A stretch of DNA of 64,000 nucleotides from the NCBI GenBank assembly GCA_014904985.1, contig MU128939.1, positions 148,913-212,912 on the forward strand. The letters run 5' to 3'. Source of the stretch: Hydnum rufescens UP504. Lineage: Eukaryota > Basidiomycota > Agaricomycetes > Cantharellales > Hydnaceae. Below, piece after piece: positions 770 through 51,249 of this stretch (position 1 is its first letter; the number at the start of each line of letters is the position of its first letter). Under the pieces are notes generated by a model, which made no database searches, was not told the origin of the DNA, and saw nothing but the letters and a program-made list of their open reading frames with translations. The position numbers and the translations under genes were made by a program.

Positions 770-935
770 CTGGGCCCCAAGCAAGCCCACACCCCTGCTG
801 TGGTGGGGGTGATCATTTACAGTATGTAATTTTCATTTTGCTACAAGTCTGCAAGAAGAGCAGCCACAGGCTGCTCTTCTTGGGTGCATGGGTGAGCCCC
901 ACTGGGCAAGCCTACTGTATATAATAATAATAAAT
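770..935 (+). repeat. Isolated dual-hairpin unit of the intron-like array family
   Basis: Hairpin 1 lies at about 786-811 (CCCACACCCC / GGTGGGGG arms) and hairpin 2 at 851-882 (AAGAAGAGCAGCC / GGCTGCTCTTCTT). The order and about 60-bp spacing match the units at 17.2-18.7 and 26.9-32.7 kb. Hairpin 2 has AAGAAGAG paired with CTCTTCTT where other units have CCAAAAGAG paired with CTCTTTTGG, so both arms changed together. It lies directly beside the E1 LTR end, as the main array lies beside E3. Confidence 0.6.
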
Positions 936-1024
936 AAATAAATAATCCTAATGGCTAGGGGCCCCAGGGGCCCCTGGGCTGCTTGACCAGCCCCCTTGAC
1001 TGAATTGCAGGGGCCCCTGGGTCT
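918..1024. repeat. ATA/AAAT microsatellite and GGGGCCCC palindromes
   Basis: Bases 918-945 are an ATAATA/AATAAATA simple repeat. Bases 957-1024 hold three copies of a GGGGCCCC or GGGGCCCCTGGG motif that are self-complementary. No gene was recognised between 935 and 1188. Confidence 0.6.
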
Positions 1025-2491
1025 GATATCTAGTTAGAGCATATAAATGCAACCTTTGAAGGATCTAGTTAGATACCAATAATTGGCTGACCAGGCTGCT
1101 CCTCAGGTCACATGTTGTGATGATCTTAGTTTGGATATGACCAAACTAACACTGGGTGCATTATCTTATCTCTGAGAGCCCATTTTTATGCATTATGACA
1201 TATCAAGCCAGGTGCCTCATGAGTCTGACCTCTCAGTCCTGGAGACTATGAAGGCCAAATTCATGATGAAGCTAAAAGATAAATGGGCATGTTCAATCCA
1301 CTTGGGAAGGTGGTGCTATTGGCCACCTGGTACAGTGGATTGTGTTAATCTGACTCCAACTGCTTTTGGCATGTGGTCAACTGCACTGGTGAGTCCTCAT
1401 ATTTGTCCTAATGTGCAGAATACCTGAATTATTTGATGTAGTTCAAGGGAATTGCAACCATCAATGAACCCCCCAAGGTGGATTAGTGTAAGGCTATGGA
1501 TGAGAATGGTATTTCCCCTGATGACTCAGCAGACATGAGTGTATTCAATAGACTGGAGAGCCCTAGTTGCTTGGGTGAAATAGCAGGAAGGATATATTAT
1601 TAAAGAGTCCTTAGATCTGTAGGCAAGCTCAAGCTTGCCCTTTTATACTATGTACAAGACATTAAAGAAAATACAGGAGAACAGTAGAATGTTCAGGTGC
1701 TATACTACTGGCACTAACAAGAAGGATATAGAATGTTCTCTTAGGTATATTATTACCATAAGAGGGTGGTAGGGGAGTTGTGCTTGATACGGTGTTAAGT
1801 CCAAATAGGGGTATTGCCATTTTGGGCTGATTACATAATCAACTCTTTATTTTTTATTCCAATATGGATTACTTTGATCCTATGACACACAAGCTCTGTC
1901 CACTCTGCAGCACCCAGAGTCACATGGTCTTGCCAACAGCACCCACAGCTGTTGATCTTCCCAGGCTGGACCAATCTGTCCCTCAGTCAACACTGAATTC
2001 TGAAGACCATCCTCTTGCTCTTGCACCAAAATTGCTCATTAAGGAGTCTATGTTACCATCTTCTACACCCTCAGCAATTCTGTCCATTCCCTCAACCCCC
2101 CAGAAACAGTCTAACCAAACACCTGCCACTCCCAGAAGTGTGGCCCCAGTTGGTGAACCACATGACATTAACCAGTTTATCAAATGGGCCAGTTCCAAAA
2201 ACCTCCCATATAACACTGAATTCAGCAATGCTATGCATGCCACAGAAGTATACCCTGATGTGACACTATCACAACTGAAGGATGAACTTCTCATTAGGGT
2301 GCTCCCACTGAAGGAGGCATCTATTCCTCAATTTTGTGATGCCTGTGCTTGGTACTAGAGGGAGAGGTTGAGGAATTTGGTGGGAAAATCTACCATCAGT
2401 GGCAGGGGCAGTCCATTGCACTTGTCAACTGTGCATGACCCTCACAATTGAGCATGCAGTTCACATTATAATCCAGTTGCACTCATGCCAA

Positions 2492-10730: not shown

Positions 10731-11218
10731 TGTTAGTTCAGTCATATCCAAACTAAGGAGTGGGGAGGAACCAGAAGGCAGAGGAGGTTCCAGGTCCAAG
10801 GTATTAGCCCAGTCTGTGGGACTAAGGCCATTCCACCTAGCCTGACAGACTAGGAGTTCCTGAAGGGTTAGGGCTTCTATACCCACAAGGGCAAGGTAAG
10901 TGGGCTTAGTCATAGGATTGGGGGTCACATAGTGTGTAGTGCATAGTCAACCAGTCCATGACTTTGTGAGCCAGACAGTTGATGGTAGAAAAAAGGTGGA
11001 TTTGGGTCCTGCCATAACTAGCTATTAAAATGGACTGCTTATGTAATGAGTAGTGAATCTAGCTAGAAACCAGGGCAGCACCAAACTCCAGTGGAGAAGC
11101 TTTCCACCAGGTAAGGGAGAAGAGAAAAGAGGAAAGAGAAATGGAAAGGGGAGACACAGACTACTACTTTCCCCAAGGGTTTGCCAAATGGCCTAAGGGA
11201 CTCCTGACACCACTAACA
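10731..11218. mobile_element. 488-bp insertion with TGTTAGT...ACTAACA ends
   Basis: This segment is absent from the colinear position in E3 (near 30901). Its ends are perfect 7-bp inverted repeats, flanked by CTG on both sides (10728-10730, 11219-11221), or by CTGTGTT if the ends are placed further in. A minus-strand frame at 10928 downwards encodes a peptide around LVGIEALTLQELLVCQARWN that I do not recognise. It could be a small TIR element or a solo LTR; the duplication length is ambiguous because it overlaps the terminal bases. Confidence 0.55.
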
Positions 11219-16065: not shown

Positions 16066-17214
16066 ATGTTATAGACATTCTCAGTATCATTCAATGCAGA
16101 TTTTCAATAGCTTTCTGAGTGCAATAATTCCAAGCAGATCAGACATGAATTGATGAAGAAACTTGTAAAACACTAGTGGATGTTGATTTTCAAAGCAATA
16201 TCATTCTGGAGAGTGCAGTTTTAATCTGTTCTTGGCATGCTTAGTACTGTTTGATGTGGATTTTTAACAGCTTTCTAGAAGTTATAATTTCAAGCAGATT
16301 GGATGTAAACTGACAGAGAAATTCATAAAATACTGTGGAATGTGGATTTTCATAGTAATATCAACCTGGAGAGTGCAGTTTGGATCCATTTAACTTGCTT
16401 TTTGTATTGTTTGAGAGGTGTGATTCATAGATTTCTAAGCATTGTATGGTTGAGCATTTCTGATCAAAACTGACAGAGTAATCAAACAAATTCTGTTTTC
16501 ATGCATAGCCATAATTAATTTAATAATAGGTCACATGATTGTTCCATAGACTGGGATCAATAGAAATTCACATTTTCTGATACAGGATGTTTTTATCTTC
16601 CACAATGGGTGCATGACTGGGACCTAAAAGGCTCATATAACTCAAATCAGCATTGGGGTTTTTTTCATAAATTAGACATACCACATGTGTCAAAAGGAAC
16701 TTTCAAATATCTCACCTGTAACTGAGCCCTCAAAAACTTCACACACAAGGTATCCATCAATACTGAGGAGTGGTAGGATCATGTAGTGCTTTCTGCAAAT
16801 GAATAACATGATCCAATTCAGGAATAGCCCCATCTCCAAGACACAGTCTTATTGTCCTTCAAACTCTCATTGGTGAATAGAAGCATATCCAGATGTGTCA
16901 CAACCTCTGCAATCTTGTTGACAAATGCCACACAGGGAGGTTCATTCCATTCCTTTGCCCTGATTGAAACTTGTTTATGGGATATGCCCAGGTAGGGTAT
17001 TGCATGGGGTTTTGACCCTGTGGGGCAGGAGTACCAATGTGGACCTGTGCCTAAAACCCACCAAGAACCCACCATCCCTGGGAATATGCAGGTGGGTTTG
17101 AATATCCCCAAGGCCTAAACCACAAGAGGCTGTAAGGTGGGTGTCTCCTGTCAAAATTCATATCTCCTGTCCACTGATAACCAATCATTTATTGTTTATT
17201 TATTAATTATTATA

Positions 17215-18715
17215 TATACACATTGGTACAGTACATAAGAGGGAAAAAAAAATCAAAGACAATGCCAAAAGAGCAGGTGGTGCTGCTCTTTTAGCATTGT
17301 CATACACCCAGTAATATAGAAACTAACTGAATATTGCCACACCTGCCAAAGCAGATGTGGCACTGTATCTATTTCATCATTAATACTCAGGGTTGGGGTC
17401 TTGGGTGGCTGCATGCATGCCTGTGTTTTGCCTGGGCCTTGTTGGTACATTCTTTGGATGGGGTGTTGTGGAGGGAGAGGAGCTAGAATAGGAAGTATGT
17501 TAGTTTAAAAAAATAACAAAAGCAATGCCAAAAGAGCAGCTGGGGCTGCTCTTTTGGCATTGTGGTACACCCCACAATGGACAAACACACCTAATATTGC
17601 CACACACCTGCTGAAGTGGGTGTGTGGTGCTGTACTTGTTTTGCTGTCATATGGGTTATGGGTAGTTGAGTGTTGGGGTCTTGTGTGGCTGCATGCATGC
17701 CCATATTTCACCCAGGCCTTGTCAGTACATTCTTTAGATGGGGGTTTCATGGAAGAAGAGGAGCTAGAATAGGGTGTATGTTAGTTCAAGAAAATAACAA
17801 AAGCACTGCCAAAAGAGCAGCCAGGGCTGCTCTTTTGGTGTTGCAATACACCCTGTAATAGATAAACACACCTAATATTGCCACACACCTGCTGAAGCAG
17901 GTGTGTGGTGCTGTACTTGTTTTGCTGTTGTATGGGTTGTGGGTAGTTGAGTGTTGGGGTTTTGGGTGGCTGTGTGTGCCCATAGTTTGTCCAGGGTCAT
18001 AGGGGTCCTGGTGGGTCTGCAGGTTGGTGTGGACTTGCAGCTGCATGGGTGTTTGCACATTACAGTTGCACCCCCTGATCTAGAATGAAAAATAATTGGT
18101 TAGTTAAGATCAAAACTCATGCAAAGAGAGCAGCAACTGCTGCTCTCTTTGCATGTTTGTAGCTATTAAAAAGATCCATACCTTATATAGCCACACACCC
18201 ACCATGGCAGGTGTGTGGCTCTGTCTTCTGTGGCTTCCTGTGTGCATTGTCATTCATTCACACATTCCCATTCACATGGCTGTGCAGGGGTGTTGGTGGG
18301 TGGGAGATCTGGCCTAGACCAGTAAATAAAGTGTTAGTTGAATTTTTAAATCCTGGGCAAAAAGAGCAGCAAGCTGCTCTTTTTGCCCATTTGTAGCTAT
18401 GGATAAAAGAAATACTTACCTTATATGACCACACCTGCAGTGGTGGGTGTGTGGTCCTATTTCTTTCTTCATTTGGGGTTGTGTTCTTGTTGCAGTAGAG
18501 TCTGACAAGCCTGCAAAGTCAATGCTGGCAATTGCCAGAATCCAAAAGGTGCCTAGCAAGCACAATATGGTGCCACACACCCACACAGTGGGTGTGTGGC
18601 ACTATTAGGTGAGTTCTTAATATGGGTGTATGACAATGCCAAAAGAGCAGCAACAGCTGCTCTTTTGGCATTGCTTGTGTTGTTTTTTAACTAACAGATT
18701 TGTTATTCTAGATCT
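17215..18715. repeat. Dual-hairpin intron-like array, block I
   Basis: Five minus-oriented units and one plus-oriented unit. Hairpin 2 (CCAAAAGAGCAGC / GCTGCTCTTTTGG) lies at 17261-17300, 17523-17563, 17806-17844, 18121-18152, 18355-18389 and 18635-18674. Hairpin 1 (CCACACACC / GGTGTGTGG) lies at 17336-17363, 17599-17630, 17879-17911, 18190-18220, 18427-18457 and 18570-18602. Spacing is 235-311 bp. In the last unit a GTGAGT at 18609 and a CTAAC...CTAG acceptor at 18711 bound a 103-nt intron-like segment containing hairpin 2. The orientation switches near 18500 by a short remnant (CAATGCTGGCAATTGCC) resembling the arm end of the palindrome at 29025. Exon-like parts share peptide-level similarity (around SKTSTAPHT) but also carry stops, so coding is doubtful. 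Confidence 0.75.
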
Positions 18716-19853: not shown

Positions 19854-22800
19854 TTAATAAAATCTGTCTACTTCATATCTACTTTGGTATTGTGCTACAA
19901 GTGCTTCAAACTCGGGGCCTTGAAATAACGAAGGATCAAGTAAAGGGAAACTCATGTTGTCCCTATTTGGAATCAGCACATCATCCATCATAGAAAATGG
20001 ATCATGTGGATTGAATGTTGGCACAATTGGGACCCCAGTGGTATGCTGAAGGGGAATCCCAACAGTAGCCTCACTGTCACTTGAGAATACAGAATGCTGT
20101 TGCACATCATTACGATGAGAACTCATAGCTTGCACATGGAGGTGGGACAGTCCAGCAGTTGGGGTTTCATCCAAGTCATCAATGATCTCTGCAGACTTGA
20201 CTTGCAGATGCTTCGTCTTGTGCAGCTGATTAAAATCATCCCCACCCTTCTGCAGCCTCTTCCCCAGTCCTTGGGTCACAATCCTGTCTGAGTTCACCAT
20301 GACAGTGTGACTTGGGTTCCTGACCGGACACCCATTCCCATGATGCCCATCAGAATCCCCTCCAGAATCCCCTCCATCAATCGTTGTATCCACTGCCTGA
20401 GCCCTCACAACTGCCCGCTCAGCTGCCCTCTTCGAATCCAGCTTCTTCTTGGCCCCAATCATTTCCAATGCACTTGCTACCATCATTAGCACTTGGCCGC
20501 CACTATCAGTAATGAGCGCAGTCTCCCCGGAGTTTGATTCCTCATGGGTACACTCAGATACTTTGAGCTGCCCATTCTCTAGAGCATATACATGGCTTGG
20601 ATCTCACTGACACTGTAGTGATCAATCGAGAGTGAACCGAGAAGCTGGAAGCGAGACAATGGCAGTACTCCATCGATCACCAAGTTGTGTGAGAGGAGTT
20701 TTTGGGGCAATTTCAGCCAAGGGAATGTGGTCCAATGAATGAACAGCTCTACTCAAGCAGGATTAGTGTAGGAACTGTCAAGAAGGTATGCATTGAGCAA
20801 ACTTACCAAATAGCTGAATCAGCATTTTCGAAACCTTCCCTTTTGCCTTATTGGGGTTCTTGAAGGCCTCTTCTCGCTCATGTCACAAAGTCTGAGCTTT
20901 ATGCTCCTCTGCCTTCCTAACCCCCACCTTGGCAGACAATATAAATGTGTATGCATCCCCAACATTGTTGGAGGGATAAAATCCCATTATGTACATACCT
21001 CATCCAGGCCCAACTACCTCCTCAAATGAATCCATATTTCTACCTTTCTCTTGTATCCACACTCATTATTCCTCTGGCTGTCAAATAGCATGGATTCACA
21101 TCCCAGGATCTGTGGTCCTTTTTACTTTTCCTCCACCCTATATACAAGACAATTATTTGTCCGTCCTAGGCACTTCAACAGGCCATCCAATTTGTACTTA
21201 TTTCCAAGCCAGTTCAACCAGGCTATAGCAATTCAACTCGCTTACTTTCGTCCATCTATTGTATCACCATTGGTGTATCCAATTGCCTCAAGGGTGGTAT
21301 TTGACCTTGGATTACATAACACAACTCCCACTTTGACTTGCAGACTTGTCACATGTTGAATAGGGGCTATTTCAATACTCTCAAGGAGTATTTCGTGAAT
21401 ATCTCCACTAATTTTGATCGGATAGACTCCGCAAGACAGCTCCCAGAAAGCTACGATCAATACCTGTCTAACGGTACCACACACGCGTTCATCGGATGAG
21501 AACTGCATCCTCCAGGTCGATTTTACCTCATGCTCCACACTATTCTTCAGTATTTTGCAAATAACTCCATCAGTTTTGATCCGATTCGTTCGAAACGACC
21601 ACCCCTGGAAAGATGCTAAAAATACGCATCTAACGGTACCAAGGGAAAAACGATCGGATTAGAAATCGGCGTTCTGTAATTTAGTCTCCCCATGGCTCAT
21701 TTCACTTTTACCTCCGCTTTTCTGATTTCTAAAGGCAATTATGGTTCCGGCACCCTATTTCCGATGGTGGGTACATCTAGGGCGACCAGTTCCACCTTTC
21801 CCCAAGGGATTTTGTTCAGTAGGAGAGGAGGAATACCTTGGTTAAGCCATATTCCCCTATTCTGACTTGTTAATTAAATATCTCCTTCAGTTTTGAAGCT
21901 TTTGACTTGATTTCTTTTTCATCATTTTTGCCTTAATCCCACCTTTCCGCCGATTACCATAGCATTTTTCTGTGATGTATATTAAGTGCAGGAGATGCGA
22001 ATTTCTATCATCTTTCCCCCCATCTTCAGTTGAAAAGCTAGTTGAACTGCTGCTGGTGTCAGGGTAAATTCCAAAACTCAACCCCCACTAATCACACTTT
22101 TGATAGGCTCTCAAGAGGAGGACCTAGAGTGTGATTCCCTGATTTATCAACCCCTTCATTTATTGTCTGGATAGGCATGGTCTATACAGGACAATTTCAC
22201 CCATACAAAGACCTCCCTCCTCTCAGACCCAAACATTCGGATTGGCCCCATGATCCCCTCTCTTTGTCCTTGTTTCCATTTCGTGGACTGTGGCTGAATT
22301 CATCTTCTGATTCCCACTTACAACATGAGACTTGAAGTCATGCCTGGACTTGTAGTATGATTCCATCTCTGCAGTCCCAAATAGCTGCCCATTCTGAGCA
22401 TGAGCAGCGGGAGAGCAGGCATTATCTGCAAGCACTGTCAACTTGCAATGCACCCCAAAGCTTGCGAAGGCCCTGAAATCCTTTTGCCATGCCCTCTTGT
22501 GGCTAGCAATGATTTTCGCAACTTCCCCCCCATGCTTTGCGATGTCTGCACTTATTGCTGCCCTAGTCTCTGTGTACTCCTTAACCAGGCAAGCTGATTC
22601 TGCTGCCCAATCCTCAGACTTCTCTCCTCCATACTTCTTAACAAGCTCATCATAGGCAGGGCAAACTGTATTTTTGGTATAATCAGATTGGCTCACTGAC
22701 TTGTCAGGGTTGGTAGGATAGCTGGATTGGAACACATTCCAGGCAATAGTTTTACATGGATGAACTACTCATGACACCCACCCACCAATCTTTTGAATTG

Positions 22801-26739: not shown

Positions 26740-26885
26740 GGGTGATGTATCATGGTCTGCTCAAGTATTAATTACATAATATAATGTTAAATATTATATA
26801 ATTCTTCACAAATAGCAATTATAATATTTAATATATAATATTATTTAATTACAATTATCGTATCAACAGCTAGTGGAATATCCAC
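26740..26885. other. AT-rich, self-complementary stretch at the array edge
   Basis: About 85-90% A+T with TAATATT/AATATTA palindromes. It separates the 5' end of H2 from the hairpin array. No gene. Confidence 0.5.
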
Positions 26886-29024
26886 TATATCCACTCCCTG
26901 CAGGTGCAGGGAGCATACTGGAAAGACCAGAACCACATACCTGACCAAAGGCCCCCAAAATATGGGGGCTTTGCATGCATACATTGCTTGGGGGTCTTCA
27001 CTTTGTCATGATTCCACTCAGTCAGGTGAGATTTTCAGCGGCTGCACATGTCCATATTTCCTGTTGCAGCTCTGTCCATGTTCTTGTTGGGTCGGGTTTT
27101 GTTGGGGCAGGGGTGACCTAGAATAACAAAAGAATCATTAGTAGAGACTATATTGAATGAAAACTTACCTGAGATTACCACACCCGCTGGAGCAGGGGTG
27201 TGGTAACACATATTATCCGTTGTTGCATAAGTTGCTGCTGGTTCAGGGGCTGGGCCCTTACACACAATCGTCAGCAGCTGCACAAGTCCATATTACACAT
27301 GGGGGGCTTCATCCATGTTCTTGTCATCAGGTGGATTTTCGTACAGGGGCAGCCTAGAATAACAAACAATATGTAACATTAGTAAAATCAAAGAGAAGTA
27401 GCACCAAAAGAGCAGCTGGTGCTGCTCTCTTGGTGCCATTGTACAACTAGTAACAAAAAACTCATGAGGTACCCACACCCGCTGTGGCGGGTATGGTACC
27501 ATACTTTGCCCATCGTTGTGTCTGTTGCAGGCATTCAGGACTTGGCCCCTTAGGTGCGATCTCCAGCAGGTGCATGTCGTTATTTCATGGGGGGTTTCGT
27601 CCCCGATCTCATTGGGCGGGGTTCATGCAGGGAGGGTGACCTAGAATAGGACATAATAATTTTAGGAAAAAAAAAGGAAGAGAGAACTCACTAGAGAGTA
27701 TCACACACCTGCTGCAGCGGGTGTGTGGTGCCATACCTATAGGTGGGACCCTCCGGATCTTGGGTAGCCATGCACGTCCGTATTATGCAGGGGGCTTCAT
27801 GTGTTCTCGTTGGATTTTCACGCAGGGGGGAAGCCTAGATTAACAAAAGATACATTATGTTAGTAAAATTGAAGAGAAGCAGCACCAAAAGAGCAGCTGG
27901 TGCTGCTCTTTTGGTGCCACTGTAGCTATTGTGGGTGAAAACTCACCTAGTGGGACCACACACCCGCTTCAGCAGGTGTGTGGTGCTGTCTTTTATCTGT
28001 CATTGCGACCTTGGGGGCTGTGGATGTATGCGGGGTATCGGACAGATTTCGGTCCATGTTGATTTCCATATGGCCATCATGGGTATGGATGCTGTGGTTC
28101 AGGTTTAAACCTGTGGAACCTGAGTTTAAACCTGAACCTGACCCAGGTCAGGTTCCATTGGGGTCAGGTTTCATTTGGTTTTCTTTGGGTCAGGTTCAGG
28201 TTTTGCCCTTGCCCTGAATCCAAAAACTGGTCTGAAACCAGGTTTAAACCTGAACCTGAAAGGTAGGGTGTAGGTTCCATTCCATGCAAATTGACCATTA
28301 TTCTGGCACCAGATCTGGCAATTTACACATGTGACTATAGTTCTGGAGTCAGAAGTCACATGACTTGGCCATCAAATGAGGTCATTGGTGCAGGTCACAA
28401 GTCACATGACATAATGTAGTGACTAAATACCATCTCCAGAAGATGTGTGAGCAATAAATTGAAGTGAAAGGGGGCTAGGAAGGAGATGTGGATGTAAAGC
28501 AGGATGTAAAGGGAGTGGCAGAGGCAGAGACTTGAGCAGAGGGTGTAGATATTCTGTAGTACCCCCTGAAAATGTTGACTTCCCTCATATCTCAGGTTTC
28601 AGGTTTAAACCAGGTTTAAACCAGAACCTGACCTGAATGGAACCAAACCTCAGGTCAGGTTCAGGTTTTGCCCTCATGGGTGATTTTGGAACCTGGTCAG
28701 GTTTAGGTTTTGCCCAAATTGGGCAAAACCTGACCAAAACCTGACTGTGGCAACCATAATCACAGGTGTTATATCGTTGTTACAGAGGTGATAACCTTAA
28801 ACCTAGAATGGAAATAATATTGTTAGTTAAAATGTTAAAGAAGTGCAAAAAGGGCAGCTTTTGGCTGCCCTGGTTGCATGGCTGTACATAGTAAAAGGGA
28901 ACTCACCTACATGACCACACACCCGCTGCCGCGGGTATGTGGTCCTCTTCTAGTTCCTCGGGATCCTGTGGTCGAGCCCTATATAAAAATGAAATGGCTT
29001 AGGTAAGCATCAAAACAAACCACT
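26885..29024 (-). repeat. Dual-hairpin intron-like array, block II, minus half
   Basis: Hairpin 1 lies at 27174-27206, 27468-27500, 27701-27732, 27957-27990 and 28913-28944. Hairpin 2 lies at 27399-27438, 27880-27919 and 28836-28868, and is absent from the units near 27120-27168 and 27640-27690. On the minus strand each unit has a donor such as GTAAGT or GTGAGT next to hairpin 1 and an acceptor ending TTCTAG. The unit at 27119-27168 has only a 50-nt intron. Unusual arms support pairing: GGTACCCACACCC with GGGTATGGTACC (27468-27500), and AGGGCAGC with GCTGCCCT (28836-28868). MITE copy 3 is inserted at 28084-28758. Confidence 0.75.
28084..28758 (-). mobile_element. hAT-like MITE, copy 3 (675 bp)
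   Basis: Ends TATGGATGC and GGCAACCATA. The 8-bp flanks are ATCATGGG (28076-28083) and ATCACAGG (28759-28766). They differ exactly as expected if the original ATCACGGG lost its CpG by C to T on one side and by G to A on the other. The interior is colinear, in reverse, with copy 2. Confidence 0.8.
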
Positions 29025-29650
29025 CAATGCTGGGACTTTCCGGGCTGGAAAGAGTGCCCAATTAGGGGCAGTACAAGGCTCATGCATAGATAATAAATAC
29101 CTAGATGCAAAATAAATAATAAATACTAAATATTTGTCTAAGACAATTGAGGAAAAGCATGATAGTCAGGTGGATTGCACTACAGCACCATGTGCAAAGC
29201 AGAATTGGGCGACTTCCATGCATTATAATTGGCCCAAATTTGATTATCTTGGGGGTATGCATGTGTATTTCATGGACAACAAAACCAATTGGATGACCTG
29301 GCTAATTTTCAATTTCTCCCACCTTCAATTTCCTATTTAGGAAATTGAAGGTGGGAGAAATTGAAAATTAGCCAGGTCATCCAATTGGTTTTGTTGTCCA
29401 TGAAATACACATGCATACCCCCAAGATAATCAAATTTGGGCCAATTATAATGCATGGAAGTCGCCCAATTCTGCTTTGCACATGGTGCCATAGTGCAATC
29501 CACCTGACTATCATGCTTTTCCTCAATTGTCTTAGACAAATATTTAGTATTTATTATTTATTTTGCATCTAGGTATTTATTATCTGTGCATATGAGCTTT
29601 GTACTGCCCCTAATTGGGTGCTCTTTCCAGCCCGGAAAGTCCCGGCATTG
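29025..29650. repeat. Near-perfect 0.62-kb palindrome (arms about 312 bp)
   Basis: Centre at about 29336-29337 (TCCTA TT TAGGA). The arms match over their whole length with only a few differences (for example ACAGCACC against ATGGTGC in complement). Outer ends are CAATGCTGGG and CCCGGCATTG. Each arm carries the same 68-codon open frame, which is explained by the symmetry and is not taken as a gene. It lies exactly where the flanking array changes orientation. It could be a fold-back element or a palindromic duplication; an RNA from it would form one long hairpin. Confidence 0.85.
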
Positions 29651-30009
29651 ATCAGATTTACTCGACATTGAGGTGCCTGAAGCAAATACAATACAGTGCC
29701 ACACACCCACCCCAGCAGGTGTGTGGCACTATAAGGTGAGTTTTTCTTATGGGGTATGGCACAACACCAAAAGAGCAGCGCCTGCTGCTCTTTTGGTGCT
29801 GTTTGAATTCTCTGCTTTACTGACATATTTATGATTCTAGGTCTATTCTCCCTCTGTGAAACCCCACATGAAGAACACAGACACAACCCAGGGTGCAATA
29901 CAGGGGTGTGCACAGCCACTCAAGACCCTGGCACTGGACTACCCGCACCCTATACGATGAATCAATGTTGGGGTCTAAGGGTGAAGTTGTCACACATCCA
30001 CTTTGGCAG

Positions 30010-31529
30010 TGTGGAAGATAAAAACATCCAGTATCAGAAAATGCAAATATCCATTGATCCCAGCCATTGGAATGATCATGTGACCTATTACGAAATCAAT
30101 TACAGCTATGCGCAGAAATTGAATTCATTCTATAACTCCGTCAGTTTTGATCGGAGAGGTACGCCCATATAACTCTCGGAAAGCCACGATTCATACCTTT
30201 CGAATGGTACCAAAAACAAGTCGAATGGACCAGAAATGCACTCTCCAGACCAATATTACTGTCAAAATTCAGGATTTTTAGTAAAAAATGAATTTCTCCG
30301 TCAGTTCGCATTCAATCCTCTCAGAACAACCGCGCCTGGAAAGATATAAAAATCCGCATCCAACAGTACTGAGCACGCGAAAAACAGATCGAAACAGAAC
30401 TCTACAGAATGATATTACTATCAGAATCAACACCCATCAGTAAAAAACAAATTTCTCTGTCAGTTTACACCGGATCTGCTCGGAACCACTGCGCCCAGAA
30501 AGCTGTCGAAACTCCGCATTGAATGATACCAAGAACGTCTATTACAGATGTAAACTGTTGTTTCTGCATCGAATCCCATCCCATGCACTTGTCCCCATTA
30601 TCAACCAGCAACAAAAACATCTTAACCACTGGACTACAAACAAATTAATCTCCAAGAACTCAGAAATATCCTTTGATTTCATCTTCCATTGCCACAAATA
30701 ACTTCTAGAACCTCACAGATAAGAAAGATAACACTCCCTTGACTACCCTTTTGTTCTGTTCATGAATGACTCACCTATCTTGCAACCACTTCATGAATGA
30801 CTCACCTATCTTGCAACCACTTTATGAATGACTCACCCTCCTTGACAACCCTATTGTTCTCACATATGACTCACCTAGGAGTGAGTCATATTCTTTAAAC
30901 ACAGCCACCTTCAGAAAGGTATAAAAGCTGGTAGATTTTCCTGTATCCCCCCATCATCTTCTCACTACTGGAATATACTACTGTCTACAAATCTGCTTGC
31001 ATCTTAAGAGAGTACTGATCTAAAGCCATCTGGAGCTAAGTCATATACAAGGTTGTTAAGACTAAGTCACTGGAAGCCCTCTACGCGAAATACTGAGCCA
31101 AGGATAGTTGCAGGACCTAAGGTTAGAGTTGCTGGACATCCAAGGAAAGGTGAGTGAAAACAAAGTTAAGTCAGAAGAAGAGAGAAACACATTGACATAC
31201 TAAATCAAGCTTAAACTAGTCTAGAGCCCTCTTTAGAATCCGCATTTTGACCAGGAGGACACAAATAGGTACCCATAAATAGCAGTAAACAGTTCAACAC
31301 AACACGTATAAGCCTTTCACAAGCATCCCACGATATATCATTGACTATAGCTAGTCCATACCACAATCTTATCCTCCACTGAATACCATACCTAACTTGT
31401 TAGAGAGTGATCAACCATCAGAGCGAACCAGCCCATTGAATAAAAACAGAAATACAGTCTCCCATCTACACACTGGCTGAACCAGAGTTTGATTTGACAG
31501 TCATCGGAGCTCCCAATCCTTCTTCTATA
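30010..31529 (+). mobile_element. Solo LTR, family E, copy E3 (1520 bp)
   Basis: Starts TGTGGAAG and ends CTTCTATA, flanked by GCAG (30006-30009 and 31530-31533). The flanks rejoin into an intact hairpin 1 of the array. CpG-rich, so relatively young. Three 165-bp modules lie at about 30128-30240, 30290-30400 and 30450-30545. A triplicated ATGAATGACTCACC motif lies at 30761-30839, upstream of the TATA box. Confidence 0.85.
30920..30927 (+). promoter_or_regulatory. TATA box of LTR E3
   Basis: TATAAAAG in the distal part of the LTR. The equivalent TATAAAAT is kept in E2 (10706-10713, minus). Transcription would start about 30 bp downstream, near the CCCCATC tract. Confidence 0.5.
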
Positions 31530-32690
31530 GCAGGTGTGTGGCAATGTTAGGTATGTTTTCTTTTTATTCCAGAGTGTACGACGATGCCAAAAGAGCAGCC
31601 CCGGCTGCTCTTTTGGTGTTACCTTCAATTTTTTTCTCTTTACTAACATATTATGACTCTAGAGACCTCTACACCGATATCTGACCCTGCGAATATACAG
31701 ACCAGGCCCAGGGCAAAACATGGGACTGCACAGCCGCCCAGACCCCCTCCCTTTGACTATCTGCAACTATATGACGACGCAACAAATAAGGTCCCACACA
31801 CCCGCAAAAGTGGGTGTGTGGCAATATTATGTGAGCTTTTTTATTACGTGGTGCACCACGACACCAAAAGAGCAGCACTAGCAGCACTTTTGGTGTGTGC
31901 CTGTGTTCTTTTTTTTACTAATGTATTTATTATTGTAGGTCCTTTCTCCCTCCGCGCAATCCCACCCGAAGAATGCACAAGGCCCAGGATGAAATACAGG
32001 CACGCAGTGATGCAAGACCCTAACCCCAAGTATCAACAAGCTTTACAATGACAAACTAGTTATGGTGCCACACACCCACTTCAGCGGGGGTGTGGAAATT
32101 TAGGTGAGTTTTTGTTTATTACAGGGTGTACCACAACGCCAAAAGAGCAGCACCAGCTGCTCTTTTGGTGTTGTCTTTGGTTTTTCTTTTCTTTACTAAC
32201 ATATTATTATATTATTATTCTAGGTACCTCCATTGCACGAGACTCCACCTGATGAGGCTCAAGGCAAATATGAACATACGCAGCCACCCAGACCCCAGAC
32301 CTCCATGACAACGAACTAACTGCAGGACCACACCCGCTGTGGCAGGTGTGGTATTAGGTTGTAAGTTTCCAAGTACAATAACGCCCAAAGAGCAGCAGTA
32401 GCTGCTCTTTGGGCACTACTTCTATTTTTTTTTAAACTAATGTATTCTTCATCATTCTAGGTGTCTTCTCGATGCATGAAACCCCACGAGAAGAACAGAC
32501 CCAAGGTCCTGCAATCTGATACCCCCATCAAAACCTGCACAAATGCCACCCGATAATGCTGCAGCCGCGCATCCCATGGCCCTGATATGGGACGGTGCAC
32601 AACAAAGGAGGAAGCCATGGTGCCACACACCTGCTGCAGCAGGTGTGTGGTAATACCTTGTAAGTTTCTTGTTATAACATCCCCCCCCCT

Positions 32691-35341: not shown

Positions 35342-35439
35342 TGTAGTGAAGCAGCTGGTGCATGGACTTCGGCAAACCCTGAACTAGCTGGTATGAGATA
35401 ATCCTATCCATAATAGGTTAATAAGCAATTGGATCGCCT

Positions 35440-36402
35440 AGGACATTGGTACATAGACAATAACAACCATCTCATTGGCAATAGATAAGAGATTCTCTAT
35501 GAAGAGTTGCAAGAGGAGGACTACTACATCAAATACAGGAAATTCACCTGTCACCTTGAGATACTCGATCTCCAAGAAAGCTATATTAAGGATGAACAAG
35601 CCAATCTCAAATGTGAACTCATTCAGGTGCAAGAAGAAGCCAAATGCATCCAATCTGTACCACTGGCAATCAGCCAGTTCCTTGAACCCATCGATCACCT
35701 GACAGGAATTACATCACCCCTGTGATGCGACATGATTTGTGCACGGCATTGGATCACCGAGAACTTTGGTACATGGAAAATAATAATCATCTTGAGGGAA
35801 TAGAGAAGAAAGCTCTCTATGAAGAGTTGCAAGAGGAGGACTACTACATCAAATACAGGAAACTCACCTGTCACCTTGAGATACTCAATCTCCAAGAAAG
35901 CTATATTAAGGATGAACAAGCCAATCTCAAACATGAACTCATTCGGGCATGAGAAGAAGTCAAATGCATCCAATCCATACCACTGGCAATCAGCCAGTTC
36001 CTCAAACCCACCAATCACCTGACAGGAATTACATCACCCCTGTGATGGTTGTGACCTGATTTGTGCATGGCATTGGATTGCCGAGAACTTTGGTACATGG
36101 AAAATAATAATCATCTTGTTGGAATTGAGAAGAAAGCTCTCTATGAAGAGTTGCAAGAGGAGGACTACATCAAATACAAGAAACTTGCCCGTCACCTTGA
36201 GATGGTCGATCTCCAAGAAAGCTATATTAAGGATGAACAGGCCAATCTCAAATGTGAACCCATTCAGGCGCAAGAAGTCAAACACATCCAATCCATACCA
36301 CTAGTAATCAGCCAGTTCCTCAGACCCATTGATCACTTGACAGGAATAGTAGGAATCAACAACTGGCTCGAATTATGTCACTTGTATTTTTTCCACTCTT
36401 GA
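35440..36402 (+). pseudogene. Triplicated coiled-coil module
   Basis: Three tandem copies of a unit of about 320 bp, anchored at 35450, 35770 and 36093, each encoding a roughly 95-residue Glu/Lys/Leu-rich segment around [20 protein letters not shown] and [14 protein letters not shown], ending ISQFLKPTNHLTGI. The copies are about 90% alike. The third copy runs to a stop at 36402. Copies one and two carry stops (for example TGA at 35950). Unknown family; the repeating heptads suggest a structural or gag-like protein. The strand is chosen because this frame is the one conserved across copies. Confidence 0.5.
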
Positions 36403-42690: not shown

Positions 42691-44477
42691 ACCCTAGGTA
42701 AAGGTTATATTACTGACAGCCCTGCCCCCGGTGCTTGGGGTGTTTTTTCCTTTGGAGTATCGATTTGCCGGCGTTGGAATTTAACTCCCACGCAGCCCCA
42801 CAAACCAGCAAAAGCGACCTGGTAATGAAACCCACCACAAATTAACAACACAACAACAAGACAACAAAAGCAGCAAAACAGCAGCCACAAGCACAGCACA
42901 ACTCAACAGCCCGCAGCAACAAATGGCACACCATGAAACTTTGGCATGACCATGACACCAACCACACCCCGCTTTTTGAATGCGGTGTTTGGGGTGGTTT
43001 CATAAGGTAAAGTTTTTTGGTCTCAGGTAAATATACCAATAGTGGGCAAAAAGTAGTTGGCGCAAGCTTTCTTCTTTTTTTTGGCGCTGCATGATTTATA
43101 CTTAACGTGCTGGTATTCCCTTCCATCAAAAACCAAAAACACAAACCGCAGGCCTGCAATGAGGTGGAAGCAAGGACCACCACTTGTGGTGTGGTGTTGG
43201 GGGGTAACTTATTTAAGGTTGAAGTCTCCCCCCCCTACATAGAATGCGCCATGGCAAAAAGAGCGTGAAAAAAAAGCTGCCTCTTTTTGGGCCATCACTT
43301 AATTTTTTGTCATTTATATTAGGTACAGTTTATTGTCAGGTCCACAATAACGACCGAGAACCACAAAGCAAGCCCCAAACGTTAAACATGCCCCCTGCAG
43401 AGGGAACCCCTTGAATGGACGACGTGCACATGAAAAAAAGAAAAAATGAACCACCACCCCACCAAAAAGCGGGTTTTGGTGGGTGTAATTTAAGGTTGAA
43501 GATATACCCATGCAAAAGGCAGTGTTAACGCTGCTCCTTTTGCGTGCTTTTTTTCTTTTATAAATATTATCCGTTATTTTAAGGTTTGTTTCATGAAACC
43601 CCGACCCCCACAAGCAACCACAAGAAAAGCAAACAAAAATGGAAACCTGAAAGTTCAAAAACCCAACATGACAAAAACCAGGCCTGTACGGAAGTACGAA
43701 CGGCCAACGACCTGCGGTAACAAAGAAACAAGGACCACCACTTTTTCCAAGTTTTTGGGTGGTGTTTCCTATTTTTTTTTTTATTTATGATTTTTCCTTA
43801 TAATGTCAACTTTGGCAAAAGACATTGAGCTCTCCCCTTGTTTGGCATCAACTTTTGAATTTTATTTTTCTAAATCAACAATTCTCCTTCTAAGGATCCT
43901 GAACCGAGAAACCCGCCGAACAAACCACCCATGGACCACCCCCTTGGTCGAAACAAGGTTACCGCGAACCAGGGGTGGCCAGGGGAAAGTCCCAACCACT
44001 TTTTTCGTGGGGGTTGTGGGTACTTTTTTAAGGGAAAGTTCCCCCCCCCTCATTGTACCTGGGTGCGCAAAAGCCAGCAAAAGCTTTGCTTTTTGCCCTG
44101 CTTTGAATTTTAACTAACCTATTTTAATTCTAGGTGTTCATAATTTTATCCAAACATCCCGGCAGAAGTTCACCTGAAACCCCATGCCCAAAAAAGAAAC
44201 CAAACGAATTTGCCACCAAACCCCCGACAAAAAAGCCAATGCAAACCGGCCCACCCACCATTGGCGGGTGTCCGGGTACATTATTTAAAGGCCAGGTTTT
44301 TTTTGGAATTTTTTTTTCCCTAAACCAAAGCGCAAAAGAGCATTGAAGGCTGGCTTTTTGTTGTGCCTTTATTTTTTAAACTAATAATTTTCCATTCTAA
44401 GGTAATCACCGCAAATAAGACGCGAAAAAGCCCACAAGAAGAAGCATCCTGGTTGAACGACGGACGTGCCAAAACAA
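42691..44477 (+). repeat. Degraded or poorly sequenced hairpin array, block III
   Basis: Recognisable array pieces: damaged hairpin 2 at 43251-43295, 43510-43545, 44066-44100 and 44330-44367; acceptor-like TAACTAACC...TTCTAG ending 44134 and CTAATAATT...TTCTAAG ending about 44402; and an exon-like AGAAGTTCACCTGAAACCCC near 44165. The hairpin arms no longer pair well, and inserted T, C and G runs are frequent. This looks like a low-coverage consensus beside the assembly gap, so base-level reading is unsafe. Confidence 0.6.
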
Positions 44478-44502: not shown

Positions 44503-44539
44503 GGCCTGGAGTCATTTGTGGTGGATACTACTTGGGCTG

Positions 44540-44750
44540 ATGATCCCAGTAGTCCCTGACAATACAGTAGTCCCCAATGATCCAGTGGTCCCTGAGGATC
44601 CAGTGGTCCCTGAGGATCCAGTGGTCCCTGAAGATCCAGTGGTCCCCAACAATCCAGCAGTCTCTGACAATCCAACAGTGCCTGATGATCTAGCAGTACC
44701 CAAAGGCCAGTAGTACCCAATGACCCAGCAGTGCCTGACAATATAGTAGT
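44540..44750. repeat. 18-bp degenerate tandem repeat
   Basis: Units like CCTGAGGATCCAGTGGTC, about ten copies. Both the plus frame (VPEDPV) and minus frames (GPLDPQ, GTTGSS) stay open because of the 18-bp period, so the coding sense is uncertain. Confidence 0.65.
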
Positions 44751-45862
44751 CCCTGATGATCCAGAAGGAATTAGAGGACCCAAGGTGGAAGTGGCAGGTG
44801 ATGTCCATGTTAGCCATAGATCCTTGCAGGTAGAAGGTGGCTTTGAAACAGGGATAGGTTGTTCGAGGACCTTGGGAAAACAACCAAAAGCTTCAGTGAA
44901 GAATGTGCATTCTTCTGGTGCCTTCATGATTGCACCCAGAGACTTCAACGCATACATTCCCTGTTTGGTCATCATAAAAATTTTTTGTACTTTCTGATGG
45001 TTTAATCATTTAAAAGCTGTGTGGCTTGAGCATCAGTAAGATGGAAAATGTGCATAGCATAAATAATGTACCCCAGGAGTCCAATACAGCCTCATCCTTG
45101 GGAAAGACTTGACAGATGGCTAGGGGATTGCCCTTGTTCACATTTGTTATGCCAGCAGGGATGGTAGGATATAATCCAATGATGTGGTTCAAAGCATCCT
45201 CAAGTGAATCATCTGTGACCTCAACAATGATCGCAGCAGTCTTCCAGGTTACAACCCTCAGCGTCGATTCAAAACAGAAAACCAGAAGAAATAGCTCACA
45301 GATTGGTGAGACCAAACCAAGGCCAGTTGGACATTGGCTAACATGAAGAATGCAACTAAATTAATGAATCCTCTGCTGAGCAAGGTCATCTGGTTGTTGA
45401 CCCAGTTGGATGGTTGCCATCGCTCAGAGGTGTAAGGAATTCCTGAGAGCACAAAGCATCTGCTCATGTTGACAGGAGGTGGGGACATTGCAGAGTTGGC
45501 AGGTTAAGTCCAGCAACAGAAAATTGAGGGGAGGATAAATCTCTATCTTTGCATTCAAAAATCCACAAAGTCAAGATGAAAAAGAGATACAGAGCATGAG
45601 CTCGTATCCAATCTTCAATCTTGGATTGGTGGATGCCAATTCCAAGATTCCAAGAAAGCTTGTATTTCAACTTTGGAGTTGCTTTGCCAATCTGGGACTT
45701 GGAATTTGGATCCAACATCATCCTCCAAAATACAGTAAATTTGTGCAGAGGATTTCTCCTCAATAATGCACTGTAGTGACAAGGGGGTTGTTTAATCACC
45801 TCCCCTAGTTGCCTCCTAGGGCTGCCTTTTAGGCCATTTACAATATCTATAAAAATGGACAT
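44700..45862 (-). pseudogene. Unidentified gene remnant
   Basis: Function unknown. Pieces on the minus strand: 45862-45464 (132 codons, around SKIEDWIRAHALYLFFILTLW), 45315-45010 (101 codons, around IIVEVTDDSLEDALNHIIGL) and 44975-44700 (around KAPEECTFFTEAFGCFPKV), in different frames with stops between. The last piece runs into the 18-bp repeat. Shared strand and composition suggest one decayed gene, but no family is recognised. Confidence 0.3.
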
Positions 45863-47779: not shown

Positions 47780-50700
47780 GCTCATAAAACTTGATGTACA
47801 AATTGCTCTTCACATACTGGCTCCTCTGTTGGGGAGACCAATTCTGTGCTCAACATGGATTCTCCTGGCTTTGGCTTAGATCCATCTGCATTCTCTCTTG
47901 CTTCTGGTTCACCATCCCCCTTACCACCACCTCATGCCGAGCAGTCCGAGTTCCTCAGTCATCAGCCTCTTGACATCATTTATGAGCCCAATCATCTCAC
48001 AGCCAAAATACAGCTATTGGATGATAGGTGATCTCACCATGCTCATTGTAGACATGCTCAAGCACAGCAGTGGAACAATGAGGTGCTCCCATCCCTAATT
48101 CACCCATTAATGAAGGCAACATGGCAATGATTTTCAGCAGCCTCTGGGAGTTGGATGCCATGTAAATGTAGTGGAAAGGTTTCTCATCTTGGGGTGTTGT
48201 GTCTCCATGGAATGGCTAGAGGACATTGTCCTAGAGGTGTGTGCATGCCATTCTGCTGCTGTCCAGCTCATTGAACATGGGTACTTCCAGTGTGCACCTC
48301 TTCACCCTACACTGGCTGTCAGCCTTGATATGCTGGAATTCACCACCACTCTATTTCTTTGCATAGGCCCCAATGAAAGGGCATGGGCAGAAACCATAGT
48401 CATGTGCCTTAAGGCTTGTGGGCATGGATTTGCCACTGGGGACTCATTTTTCTGACACTTTGAAAATGTGCTTGCTTACTATCAGCTGCTTGTTCACTTG
48501 GTTAATGCAGAGGTTACTCAAATAATTGAGGCAGATAAGGGGGAGATGCCAACAGTCTTGGATGAGGCAATGCCTGTCAATGAGTGAGCGTACCCTAGTG
48601 CTAATGCAGAGGCACCAAACAATCGTACAGCTGCCCAGCATAGTGCTTCTGATAGTATATTGTGACCACACAAATACTTAAGATCAAGGTGTCCCCTTTG
48701 TTTTGGTGGGAATCATACAGACCCTTCTAACAGGACGTAAGTAGAGGAGTGCTTCTTAGTCCTTTTGTTTTCACTTCTAACTAGCTTAATCATACAGTGT
48801 GCAGCTAATAGTCTGTATTGATGGAAATTTCCAGCTGAAACGAATGCATGATAAAGACCAGAGACCTGGCCATGAAGGGGAGACTGGGACACACAATCCT
48901 GCTCTTATGTCACCAACATCAATCATCTTGTTGAGGGAATATCTTGAGGAATGGGAGAAGAGAATACTGCATGTCTGGGAACTGAAATCATTGTGCTCTG
49001 GGCAGAAATGCAGGGCCAAAGAGTCCATTGAGGATGACACAGGAGACCCTCAAGAAGCCAACAAAGTGGAGCAGGGACTATATGCCCCCAACTTGACATA
49101 TGATGCATGCCAAGAATCATTTATTGCAGCCGATGAAGATTGTATAAAGGCATCTACACAATACTTTGAAGATACTGGCATGATGGCTCTCCTCTGTCAT
49201 CATGATATACCACTTTTTGCAGCAAGCATGTGGACTGCAGGAGAAAAGCAGTTCTATGTGTTCACACTGATGCAGAGACTATTGGATTACCTCCCCAGTC
49301 ACTGGAGAGTTGGCACCTTGTATGATATTGGCTGTCAAATGGATCAGTCTCTCAAAAAGTGGAATTTTATGCCAGAATGGCAGCCACATCTTGAGTGGGG
49401 TGTATCTATATTCCATGCCCATGGCCATCAATGGGGCTGTCAGCTCTGGTACCATCCATGAAAGTCCAAGCTCTGGGGTCTGTCAGATGGTGAAGGTTGT
49501 GAGAGATTTTGGAGCGAGCTTTGGAAACTCATCCCAGGCTTGCAGGTGATGGGCTATCACCATTGTATGTTCATCTTGGACCTTCAAGTTGAACATATTG
49601 ATGGAGGCAAGTGAATGGGAATGGGCAAGTGGCTGCAAGATCATGTTGACCATGCACAGATGCGCCTAGAAGAAGCTGAAAAGAAGCTTGGTGATCATTG
49701 TTCAAGCTACCTACTCAACCAGTTCAAGGCCCAATGAGAATATCACAGTTGGCCCATCTCATGACAATCTCAGACAAAGGGAGCACATGCCATTGATTGA
49801 ATCATGTCCCTGAATGCAACTCTCGATGCTCAGAGAGAAAATCTGAAGGATGTCATTGCAGAGGGGAATGGTTTAGTACAAGATGATTCCTCTGTGAGTA
49901 TCTTGGTGCAGGTGGAGTGGCAGGAGAAAGTAAGGGCCCTGAAGGGTACTATCCAATGTCTAGAGAATGTGATCACAAAGAAGACAGAGGAGCTGCAGTT
50001 GTCTGATCGAGCCTCTGCTGCTGAGTTGACAAAGCTCAAGAAAGATAAATGGGTCAATCTACAACTTAACCTCCATGTGTTGCATGAGCAGTTTCTCCAG
50101 AAGCTACAAGCTAGAAAGTTTGAGCTTGTGACATTGGATCATGCTAACTCAAGTTGTATACTGGACCAGAAGACCAAGGCCCATGTTGAGAAGGCAGTCA
50201 AGGGACAGTCAGGTGGAATTGAGGCAACTGTGAAGAAGTACAATGGACAGCTGAAGGAACTAGCAGTACTGTGAGGAAAAGGGGGGATCTGCAAAGATGC
50301 CTACATTCCCCCATTGCTCTCTATGGAGGGCCTGTATAAACTTGATGTAGATCAAGATATCTGGGAAGACTCTAGGGGTGATATGGCAGATTTCCCTGAT
50401 GGAGTTGTGCCCCCATGGCTAGCCAACCCCTCAGTGAAAGAAGGTATCTGACTTTCTCAGGAGGTAGCCAGCTGTCATGAGGAATTGGAGTGATGCAAGG
50501 CTGAGCATGCAAATCTTTGGACATGGTTCACAGAGGAATATTCAGCAGCAAATAATGTGTTCATGGGGTCTGAGGATGAAGAGGTTTCCTATTTTGCTCT
50601 TATCAGGGTGCACCAGCTATATGATTGGATGATGGCATGGAAAAAGTACATGGTCCACATCCCAACTGTGTCTGGAATGTCTGTCCCCAATATGTGTGCA

Positions 50701-50890: not shown

Positions 50891-51249
50891 ATATTAGAGG
50901 ATGAAGAATGATACTTCACTAATGTTTAACCTTAAATAAATTAACACATCCTTTGAGATTGGCATTACAAATATCCTCAAGTTTGAAGGTATGAGAAGTC
51001 TCTAGTGATACTAGGCCTTGTGAAAATACAGGAGTTCACTACTTTTGATCTCAAATTGACATCAAAAATCCTCAAATGTGGCTTGTATGGTCATCAAATG
51101 CCCTTTTGATCAATATTTGATGTCAAACAGTTTTCTGCCCTACTAGGTACCATATTGACATCAATTTGACATACCTTTTGAGGTCTACCCAAGTGGCTGA
51201 CCAGGCTGTTGGTTTCAATTTTTGAACATCAGATGACAAATACTGATAT
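50891..51249. other. No gene; repeated GATGTCAAA-like words
   Basis: Words such as TTGACATCAAA and TTTGATGTCAAA recur in both orientations between 51045 and 51180, and may be subterminal repeats of the hAT element whose 3' coding end follows. Confidence 0.35.

What the first reader, a model, noticed from the sequence alone, without database searches (positions are those of the whole stretch)
26885..32690. Tandem arrays of exon-intron units, each with two covarying hairpins
Units of about 235-310 bp recur here, at 17215-18715, at 42691-44477 (damaged) and singly at 770-935. Each has an exon-like part ending in hairpin 1 (CCACACACCC / GGGTGTGTGG) within about 15 bases of a GTGAGT/GTAAGT donor, then hairpin 2 (GCCAAAAGAGCAGC / GCTGCTCTTTTGGC) inside a 100-120 nt intron ending CTAAC...TAG. 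Paired changes occur in hairpin 2: CAAAGAGAG/CTCTCTTTG (18121), GGGCAAAAAGAG/CTCTTTTTGCCC (18355), GCCCAAAGAG/CTCTTTGGGC (32382), AAGAAGAG/CTCTTCTT (851), AGGGCAGC/GCTGCCCT (28838). Near-identical structured introns recall introner-like elements known in some fungi, but here intron and exon are amplified together. I know of no described element with this layout.
Basis: partly seen in the sequence, partly recalled or inferred. Interest (0 to 1): 0.88.

Follow-up and report, generated by a model that had tools for sequence, protein, structure and literature searches.

The report
Mushroom transposon with mirrored intron arrays
In a hedgehog mushroom, a jumping-DNA family in many copies carries two rows of similar introns facing away from a palindromic centre; the introns look kept by selection although the sequence between them does not seem to code for protein.

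Summary
The repeats are real, but they are the two arms of a large inverted-repeat (foldback-like) DNA transposon, not a free tandem array. Arms of 2-9 detected exon-intron units run outward from a 0.2-0.7 kb near-perfect palindrome that looks like a symmetric promoter. Of seven elements with both ends located, all have terminal inverted repeats and five have perfect 8-bp target-site duplications (two do not). Two TIR types occur; one ends in the same 18 nt as KDZ-transposase elements of this genome (Hydnum rufescens UP504, identified from contig lengths). Exact hairpin 2 occurs 921 times. In 131 full-length units, GT, branch point and AG change far less than the surrounding sequence, also between recent copies, so splicing has probably been selected. 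Hairpin 2 covaries in at least three separate sets of units; hairpin 1 mostly does not (independent CpG decay). Exons look noncoding. 30010-31529 is an unrelated inserted element. Splicing itself is not shown: no reads were available, and public gene models agree only in part. Verdict: a new variant of foldback, non-autonomous DNA transposon; its intron arrays match nothing in the paper listings searched.

The parts
27149..28960 (-). Left arm: exon-intron units reading away from the centre (five nhmmer hits; broken by a GGTTTAAACC-rich stretch at about 28010-28780)
   Evidence: nhmmer unit model; stretch read
29024..29651 (.). Central palindrome, 96.8% self-complementary over 630 bp, centre about 29337; promoter-like, related to 12 other centres
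   Evidence: self-blast, alignment of 32 half-centres
29685..32678 (+). Right arm: exon-intron units reading away from the centre (seven nhmmer hits)
   Evidence: nhmmer unit model
29696..29729 (+). Hairpin 1 at the end of the first exon of the right arm
   Evidence: sequence
29736..29840 (+). Predicted intron 1 of the right arm, GTGAGT..TTCTAG, 105 nt
29767..29796 (+). Hairpin 2 inside intron 1
30010..31529 (.). Unrelated inserted element (TG..TA, solo-LTR-like, 4-nt duplication GCAG) splitting hairpin 1 of a unit; 92-95% identical copies in L024 and L038, a relative (about 76% over the first 1.4 kb, 86% near the other end) in L048
31551..31662 (+). Predicted intron, GTATGT..CTCTAG
31831..31938 (+). 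Predicted intron, GTGAGC..TTGTAG
32104..32223 (+). Predicted intron, GTGAGT..TTCTAG
32361..32460 (+). Predicted intron, GTAAGT..TTCTAG
27835..27946 (-). Predicted intron of the left arm, GTGAGT..ATCTAG
27354..27465 (-). Left-arm intron with a lost donor (ATGAGT)
16993..18711 (-). Second, truncated copy of TIR type B (TIR-like end at 16993, three mismatches; five minus units and one plus unit); predicted introns 17590-17483, 17871-17764, 18181-18080
786..1098 (+). Right end of a type-A copy: one weak unit hit, (TAA)n-rich tail, terminal ..TTGGCTGACCAGGCTG
43447..44403 (+). Two decayed units, splice sites largely lost
51191..51208 (+). Terminal AAGTGGCTGACCAGGCTG of a KDZ-transposase element, identical to ends of type-A array elements
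48790..49461 (+). KDZ transposase domain (PF18758) of that element; the next ORF, 49801-50274, has no Pfam match

Best explanation
The feature is one copy of a family of non-autonomous, foldback-type DNA transposons of Hydnum rufescens. Shown: located elements are TIR - array of exon-intron units on the minus strand - near-perfect palindromic centre - array on the plus strand - TIR, most flanked by a perfect 8-bp duplication. Inferred: the palindromic centre (CCAAT- and TATA-like motifs) is a symmetric two-way promoter; each arm is transcribed outward; the 88-123-nt introns are spliced; the intron hairpin folds in the pre-mRNA and shortens the path from donor to branch point while leaving both splice sites free; the mature RNA is noncoding. 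Type-A copies are probably moved by a KDZ transposase acting on the shared ends; the mover of type B is unknown (8-bp TSD, as in hAT or Zisupton). Most likely benefit, speculative: efficient splicing lets the element stay transcribed and escape a stalled-spliceosome RNAi defence like that described in Cryptococcus.
For: Structure: in 20 fetched loci plus the window, neighbouring arrays of opposite strand meet 24 times, 19 divergent and 5 convergent; 16 of 19 divergent spacers are self-complementary (88.8-99.1%) and 0 of 5 convergent ones. TIRs in 7 of 7 elements with both ends located; perfect 8-bp TSDs in 5: L048, C4, C266, C114 (type A), L030 (type B). Common sharp end in nine aligned type-A copies. 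KDZ link: the 409-bp end of the window's KDZ element has 40 scored matches (104 candidates), all 40 ending at the terminal base; six, the window's own included, lie 1.6-1.7 kb downstream of a listed KDZ domain on the same strand. Splicing: of 131 full-length units (of 272 core hits) 117 keep GT and 106 keep GT and AG. In 56 pairs of units (each unit used once) at 70-88% identity, non-CpG change is 6.5% at GT, 1.9% at AG, 11.2% at CTAA, against 24.4% in the rest of the intron and 27.4% at exon edges; in 33 recent pairs 1 of 258 GT/AG/CTAA cells against 74 of 1920. Genome-wide, 554 matches put GTRAGT 12-42 nt upstream of a hairpin-2 arm (some arms counted twice); a slightly different donor pattern on the wrong side gives 17. 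Hairpin-2 covariation. Public gene models P0122 and P0124 decode exactly on the two diverging arms of L030; P0124 ends its six introns at array acceptors (five in my set, the sixth the end of a unit hit).
Against: No RNA evidence. P0124 uses the predicted donor type at only 2 of 6 introns, and P0122 at 2 of 8 (acceptors 4 of 8); others are moved into hairpin 1 or elsewhere, as a frame-keeping predictor would do. Two of seven located elements (C134, L032) lack a TSD (4-5 mismatches of 8). The left end of the KDZ element was not found, and KDZ and array elements share only about 18 nt. No TIR or TSD was found for the window's own main copy. GU against AC cells, which would separate RNA from DNA pairing, favour RNA only weakly: hairpin 2 outside CpG 26 to 12, at CpG 43 to 36; hairpin 1 outside CpG 38 to 32, at CpG 47 to 48. 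RAGT is constrained only weakly (19.1% against 24.4%). The RNAi-escape step rests on analogy.
Confidence: 0.66

Rival explanations
1. Each arm is a decayed multi-exon protein-coding gene whose exon was tandemly duplicated; the exons encode a repeated peptide.
For: 33 of 34 proteins (E up to 1) matching a spliced-arm translation are annotated Hydnum hypothetical proteins; L030 plus arm gives a 248-aa spliced ORF against a maximum of 158 in 30 shuffles, L035 minus arm 162 against 153.
Against: 54 exons bounded by intact sites have lengths mod 3 (0/1/2) of 11/17/26; 28 have an open frame against 21.9 in shuffles. 10 of 12 arms have no ORF above their shuffle maximum, and the antisense strand reads a longer ORF in 8 of 12. 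The gene models need shifted donors.
Confidence: 0.1
2. The hairpins act as DNA: palindromic binding sites or cruciforms for a transposase or host protein, and the intron look is secondary.
For: Both hairpins are near-perfect palindromes; hairpin 1 changes at CpG are symmetric between strands (47 GU, 48 AC); the foldback element Tetris also carries internal tandem repeats (passages of PMC4079207).
Against: GT, AG and branch point lie outside both palindromes and are constrained to a similar degree; hairpin-2 sets exchange base pairs at positions 98, 99 and 101 in mutually exclusive units and keep pairing, which a fixed binding site would not allow.
Confidence: 0.15
3. The arrays are precursors of small RNAs or other processed hairpin RNAs; introns release hairpin 2, exons carry hairpin 1.
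For: Two stems per unit, 13 and 16 pairs in the structure counted.
Against: Stems are short for known Dicer substrates (general knowledge); no small RNA data; does not by itself explain the splice signals.
Confidence: 0.08
4. Introner-like element that spreads introns into genes.
For: Similar introns in high copy number linked to a DNA transposon, as in the introners of PMC9860276 (passages read).
Against: All 16 loci in the capped list of exact hairpin 2 carry these units as arrays or array fragments, none as a lone intron; transposon ends lie kilobases outside most introns. Lone single arms in the list (such as C4:53073) were not examined.
Confidence: 0.02

Closest known systems
Foldback transposons (Drosophila FB, Galileo, Tetris)
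   Same: DNA transposon, long inverted arms containing tandem repeats; Tetris is non-autonomous with 8-10 bp TSDs (PMC4079207 passages). FB and Galileo details are recalled.
   Different: Repeat unit is exon plus intron with splice signals kept; palindromic promoter-like centre; the TIRs lie outside the arms. The word intron does not occur in the main text of the Tetris paper.
KDZ (Kyakuja-Dileera-Zisupton) DNA transposons
   Same: Type-A end identical over 18 nt to the end of local KDZ elements; 8-bp TSDs as in Zisupton and Dileera; CA..TG termini as in Kyakuja (PMC12730594 passages).
   Different: No KDZ match inside the seven located elements; Laccaria Kyakuja makes 7-bp TSDs and lacks TIRs.
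Introners
   Same: Many similar introns linked to a DNA transposon.
   Different: The transposon is not the intron; exon and intron repeat together and no insertion into genes was seen.
Transposon introns in Cryptococcus and the SCANR RNAi pathway
   Same: Basidiomycete setting where splicing efficiency of transposon RNA decides silencing (PMC5851062 passage).
   Different: Cryptococcus transposon introns splice poorly; here signals look near-canonical. The link is my inference.

Membership tests
Foldback DNA transposon | Long inverted arms around a centre | tested here: met
   16 of 19 divergent centres palindromic, 0 of 5 convergent spacers
Foldback DNA transposon | Internal tandem repeats in the arms | tested here: met
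   nhmmer units; the five used for the profile are 239-286 bp
Foldback DNA transposon | Target-site duplications | tested here: met
   perfect 8 bp in 5 of 7 elements with both ends located
KDZ superfamily | KDZ transposase inside the element | tested here: not met
   tblastn with 40 of 120 KDZ proteins fetched: no hit inside the seven elements; ten L048 ORFs against Pfam: no transposase. Not filed as an autonomous KDZ element
KDZ superfamily | Ends recognised by a KDZ transposase | tested here: inconclusive
   18-nt identity of one end with local KDZ elements; other KDZ end not found
KDZ superfamily | 8-bp TSD (Zisupton/Dileera) | tested here: met
   4 of 6 type-A elements
hAT (for type B) | 8-bp TSD | tested here: met
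   L030, one element
hAT (for type B) | hAT transposase partner | not tested
   No transposase search made for type B
Introner | Element boundaries coincide with the intron | tested here: not met
   Ends belong to 4.3-6.6 kb elements
Introner | Insertion into host exons | tested here: not met
   0 of 16 loci of the capped list show a lone intron
Spliceosomal intron | Canonical GT, branch point, AG under constraint | tested here: met
Spliceosomal intron | Observed splicing | not testable with these tools
   No reads available; gene models agree in part

The most novel reading that the evidence does not exclude
A transposon whose selected product is splicing itself: arms transcribed both ways from one palindromic promoter make long noncoding RNAs in which each unit is a self-contained, hairpin-closed, efficiently spliced intron, kept as a shield or decoy against spliceosome-coupled RNA silencing rather than for any protein.
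Probability: 0.3. Interest if true: 0.9.

Novelty: new variant of a known kind. Interest (0 to 1): 0.72.

Why it matters
Non-autonomous DNA transposons are usually thought to need only their ends (general knowledge). Here many copies also keep internal splice signals and a base-paired intron hairpin without an evident protein, which points to RNA-level selection on a DNA transposon. It gives a natural set of several hundred variant introns (same layout, many sequences, compensatory stem changes) for testing how pre-mRNA hairpins steer splicing, and a direct test of whether efficient splicing protects mobile DNA from silencing in mushrooms. Such elements also seem to enter gene catalogues as dozens of doubtful hypothetical proteins.

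Tried and rejected
Rfam scan of the window: 0 matches. tRNA scan: 0. Helitron 3' hairpin idea: considered from memory and dropped once TIRs and 8-bp TSDs were found. Viral-contig scan for hairpin 2: 0; prokaryote-genome scan: 2 stretches in bacterial contigs, not examined. TIR/TSD search on the window's main copy: nothing convincing. Left end of the KDZ element: not found. Metagenome relatives: P0134 only, which seems to read through an intron unspliced; its last residues are shared with the otherwise different P0155, possibly an artefact, so no claim on other species. The genome count of 809 donor-like matches is not used because the pattern also matches hairpin 1. The branch/acceptor genome count did not complete.
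Full report
WHAT THE WINDOW IS. The window is C31:148913-212912 of a 63.2 Mb assembly in 539 contigs. Contig lengths attached to annotated Hydnum rufescens UP504 proteins (392199 and 618593) equal those of C28 and C4, so the organism is very probably this hedgehog mushroom.

The five named junction pairs all carry GT..AG. The exact hairpin-2 palindrome occurs 921 times in the genome against 0 for the control. But units at 27149-28960 lie on the minus strand and those at 29685-32678 on the plus strand, with a 96.8% palindrome of 630 bp between them. And 30010-31529 is a separate element, found at 92-95% identity in L024 and L038 and as a relative of about 76-86% in L048, bounded by TG..TA with a 4-nt duplication GCAG in the window; it looks like a solo LTR.

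ANATOMY. I fetched 20 loci of 6.5-10 kb around hairpin or unit hits. Neighbouring arrays of opposite strand meet 24 times in these loci and the window: 19 times divergent, 5 times convergent. 16 of the 19 divergent spacers are self-complementary at 88.8-99.1% over 235-663 bp; the three that are not are L037, L038 (3.9 kb spacer) and the truncated copy at window 18480. None of the 5 convergent spacers holds a palindrome over 100 bp, so the palindrome marks the place from which the introns read outward. Aligned half-centres from 15 loci and the window share conserved blocks with CCAAT- and TATA-like strings (motif names are general knowledge). I read this as a symmetric promoter; that is inference.

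ENDS. Nine copies end at the same base..GGCTGACCAGSCTG. Seven elements have both ends located, all with TIRs. Five have perfect 8-bp duplications: L048 6563 bp AGGGAATC, C4 6171 bp GCTATGTG, C266 5105 bp GAAAACCC, C114 6201 bp AATGTCAC (type A, CA..TG), and L030 4320 bp CCTCACCC (type B, TAGGCTATTGCAC). C134 and L032 (type A) have none, with 4-5 of 8 positions differing. The 16-nt type-A pattern occurs 162 times in the genome, control 0; the left 179 bp gave 411 first-look candidates, of which 40 were scored, all at 91% identity or more. The type-B TIR occurs 41 times, with facing pairs 4.3-6.0 kb apart on C2, C41, C68 and C92. The window holds a type-A right end at 1098 and a type-B copy at about 16993-18711; the ends of its main copy were not found.

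WHO MOVES IT. The window also carries a KDZ transposase gene whose element ends in the same 18 nt at 51208. In C19 the flank beyond the end is unrelated to that in C31. Fungal Zisupton and Dileera make 8-bp duplications (PMC12730594, passages). So type A is plausibly a KDZ passenger. The other KDZ end was not found, and 40 KDZ proteins find no match inside the seven located elements, nor do ten L048 ORFs match a transposase family. Likely, not proven.

SPLICING. Of 272 core hits, 131 full-length units were aligned; partial hits were left out. GT is kept in 117 and both GT and AG in 106 of 131; introns with both, as counted, have a median of 108 nt, range 88-123, n=105. Mean column identity is 0.92-0.94 in the stems, 0.81 over GTRAGT, 0.88 over the branch site, 0.95 over YAG; it is 0.58-0.61 at exon edges and between donor and hairpin 2, and 0.70-0.78 in the other stretches. 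To limit the effect of shared ancestry I used each unit once, in pairs, leaving out CpG changes: at 70-88% identity (56 pairs) change is 6.5% at GT, 1.9% at AG, 11.2% at CTAA, 5.3% in hairpin 2, 8.2% in hairpin 1, 24.4% in the rest of the intron, 27.4% at exon edges; in 33 recent pairs 1 of 258 signal cells against 74 of 1920. The RAGT part is only weakly constrained (19.1%). Genome-wide, 554 matches place GTRAGT 12-42 nt upstream of a hairpin-2 arm in the sense direction, some arms counted twice, out of 2258 single arms of both directions; on the wrong side GGTRWGT, a slightly different pattern, gives 17.

COVARIATION. On 129 distinct rows, 94.4% of cells pair (shuffled 89.3), 24 of 29 pairs have changes on both sides (shuffled 10.6), 244 cells (shuffled 90.9), 0 of 500 shuffles as high; slid versions reach at most 59% paired. 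Hairpin 2 carries it: double changes at pairs 98/124 (10 units, 10 loci), 99/123 (10 units, 9 loci) and 101/121 (11 units, 7 loci) are in mutually exclusive units; pair 97/127 changes in 29 units and includes all 11 of the last set. Hairpin 1 mostly does not covary: pair 14/24 shows CG 68, TG 27, CA 24, TA 11, and 10.2 TA are expected from independent change (my arithmetic). GU against AC, which separates RNA from DNA pairing, is 26 to 12 in hairpin 2 outside CpG and nearer even elsewhere: a hint only.

CODING. Exon lengths mod 3 (0/1/2) are 11/17/26 of 54; 28 have an open frame against 21.9 in shuffles. Two of 12 spliced arms exceed the maximum of 30 shuffles (L030 plus 248 aa, L035 minus 162 aa); the antisense strand has the longer ORF in 8 of 12. 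A search with the 248-aa reading gave 34 proteins at E up to 1 (30 below 0.001), 33 of them annotated Hydnum hypotheticals and one from a metagenome. Two of them with consecutive numbers, P0122 and P0124, decode exactly on the two diverging arms of L030. P0124 has six introns, all ending at array acceptors but only two with the predicted donor type; P0122 has eight, with four and two. This supports outward, intron-rich reading by an independent pipeline but looks frame-driven and is not proof of splicing.

FUNCTION. Something keeps splice signals in a DNA transposon without evident protein. In Cryptococcus, poorly spliced transposon RNA feeds a spliceosome-coupled RNAi pathway (PMC5851062, passage). 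A transposon RNA with many well-formed, hairpin-closed introns could escape or overload such a system. This is my proposal; nothing here tests it.

PRINT SEARCHES. Searches for Zisupton with TSDs, introners, foldback transposons in fungi, stalled spliceosomes, Hydnum rufescens with transposable elements, introner-like elements with secondary structure, foldback elements with tandem repeats, Kyakuja with non-autonomous, and bidirectional promoters in nonautonomous elements showed no such element among the titles and abstract starts listed, which are capped; I read passages of four papers, not whole texts. Subscription papers and Repbase were not searched.

Noticed in passing
window 40326-41318 (+), 48790-49461 (+), 54195-54989 (-): Three KDZ-transposase domains (PF18758); the element of the middle one ends at 51208 with a TIR shared with the array elements.
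   Followed up: partly
window 30010-31529; pieces at 55-745, 10105-10732, 16067-16609: Copies and fragments of a 1.5 kb TG..TA solo-LTR-like element, one of them inside a hairpin 1 of the array.
   Followed up: partly
window 20966-22324; L025 657-2015; L026 4264-5619; L041 about 113-1491: A 1.36 kb repeat that also sits within or beside array elements in three loci.
   Followed up: no
window 28010-28780: GGTTTAAACC- and GGCAAAACC-rich stretch with inverted motifs between left-arm units; looks like a nested small transposon.
   Followed up: no
window 4695-6212 (-): DDE_1 (PF03184) transposase-like reading frame of 505 aa.
   Followed up: no
window 35428-36347 and 44537-44764: 320-bp tandem repeat (2.9 copies) and an 18-bp tandem array.
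   Followed up: no
proteins P0121-P0150: 29 annotated Hydnum hypothetical proteins and one metagenome protein match a spliced arm at E below 0.001; they are probably translations of these transposon arms.
   Followed up: partly
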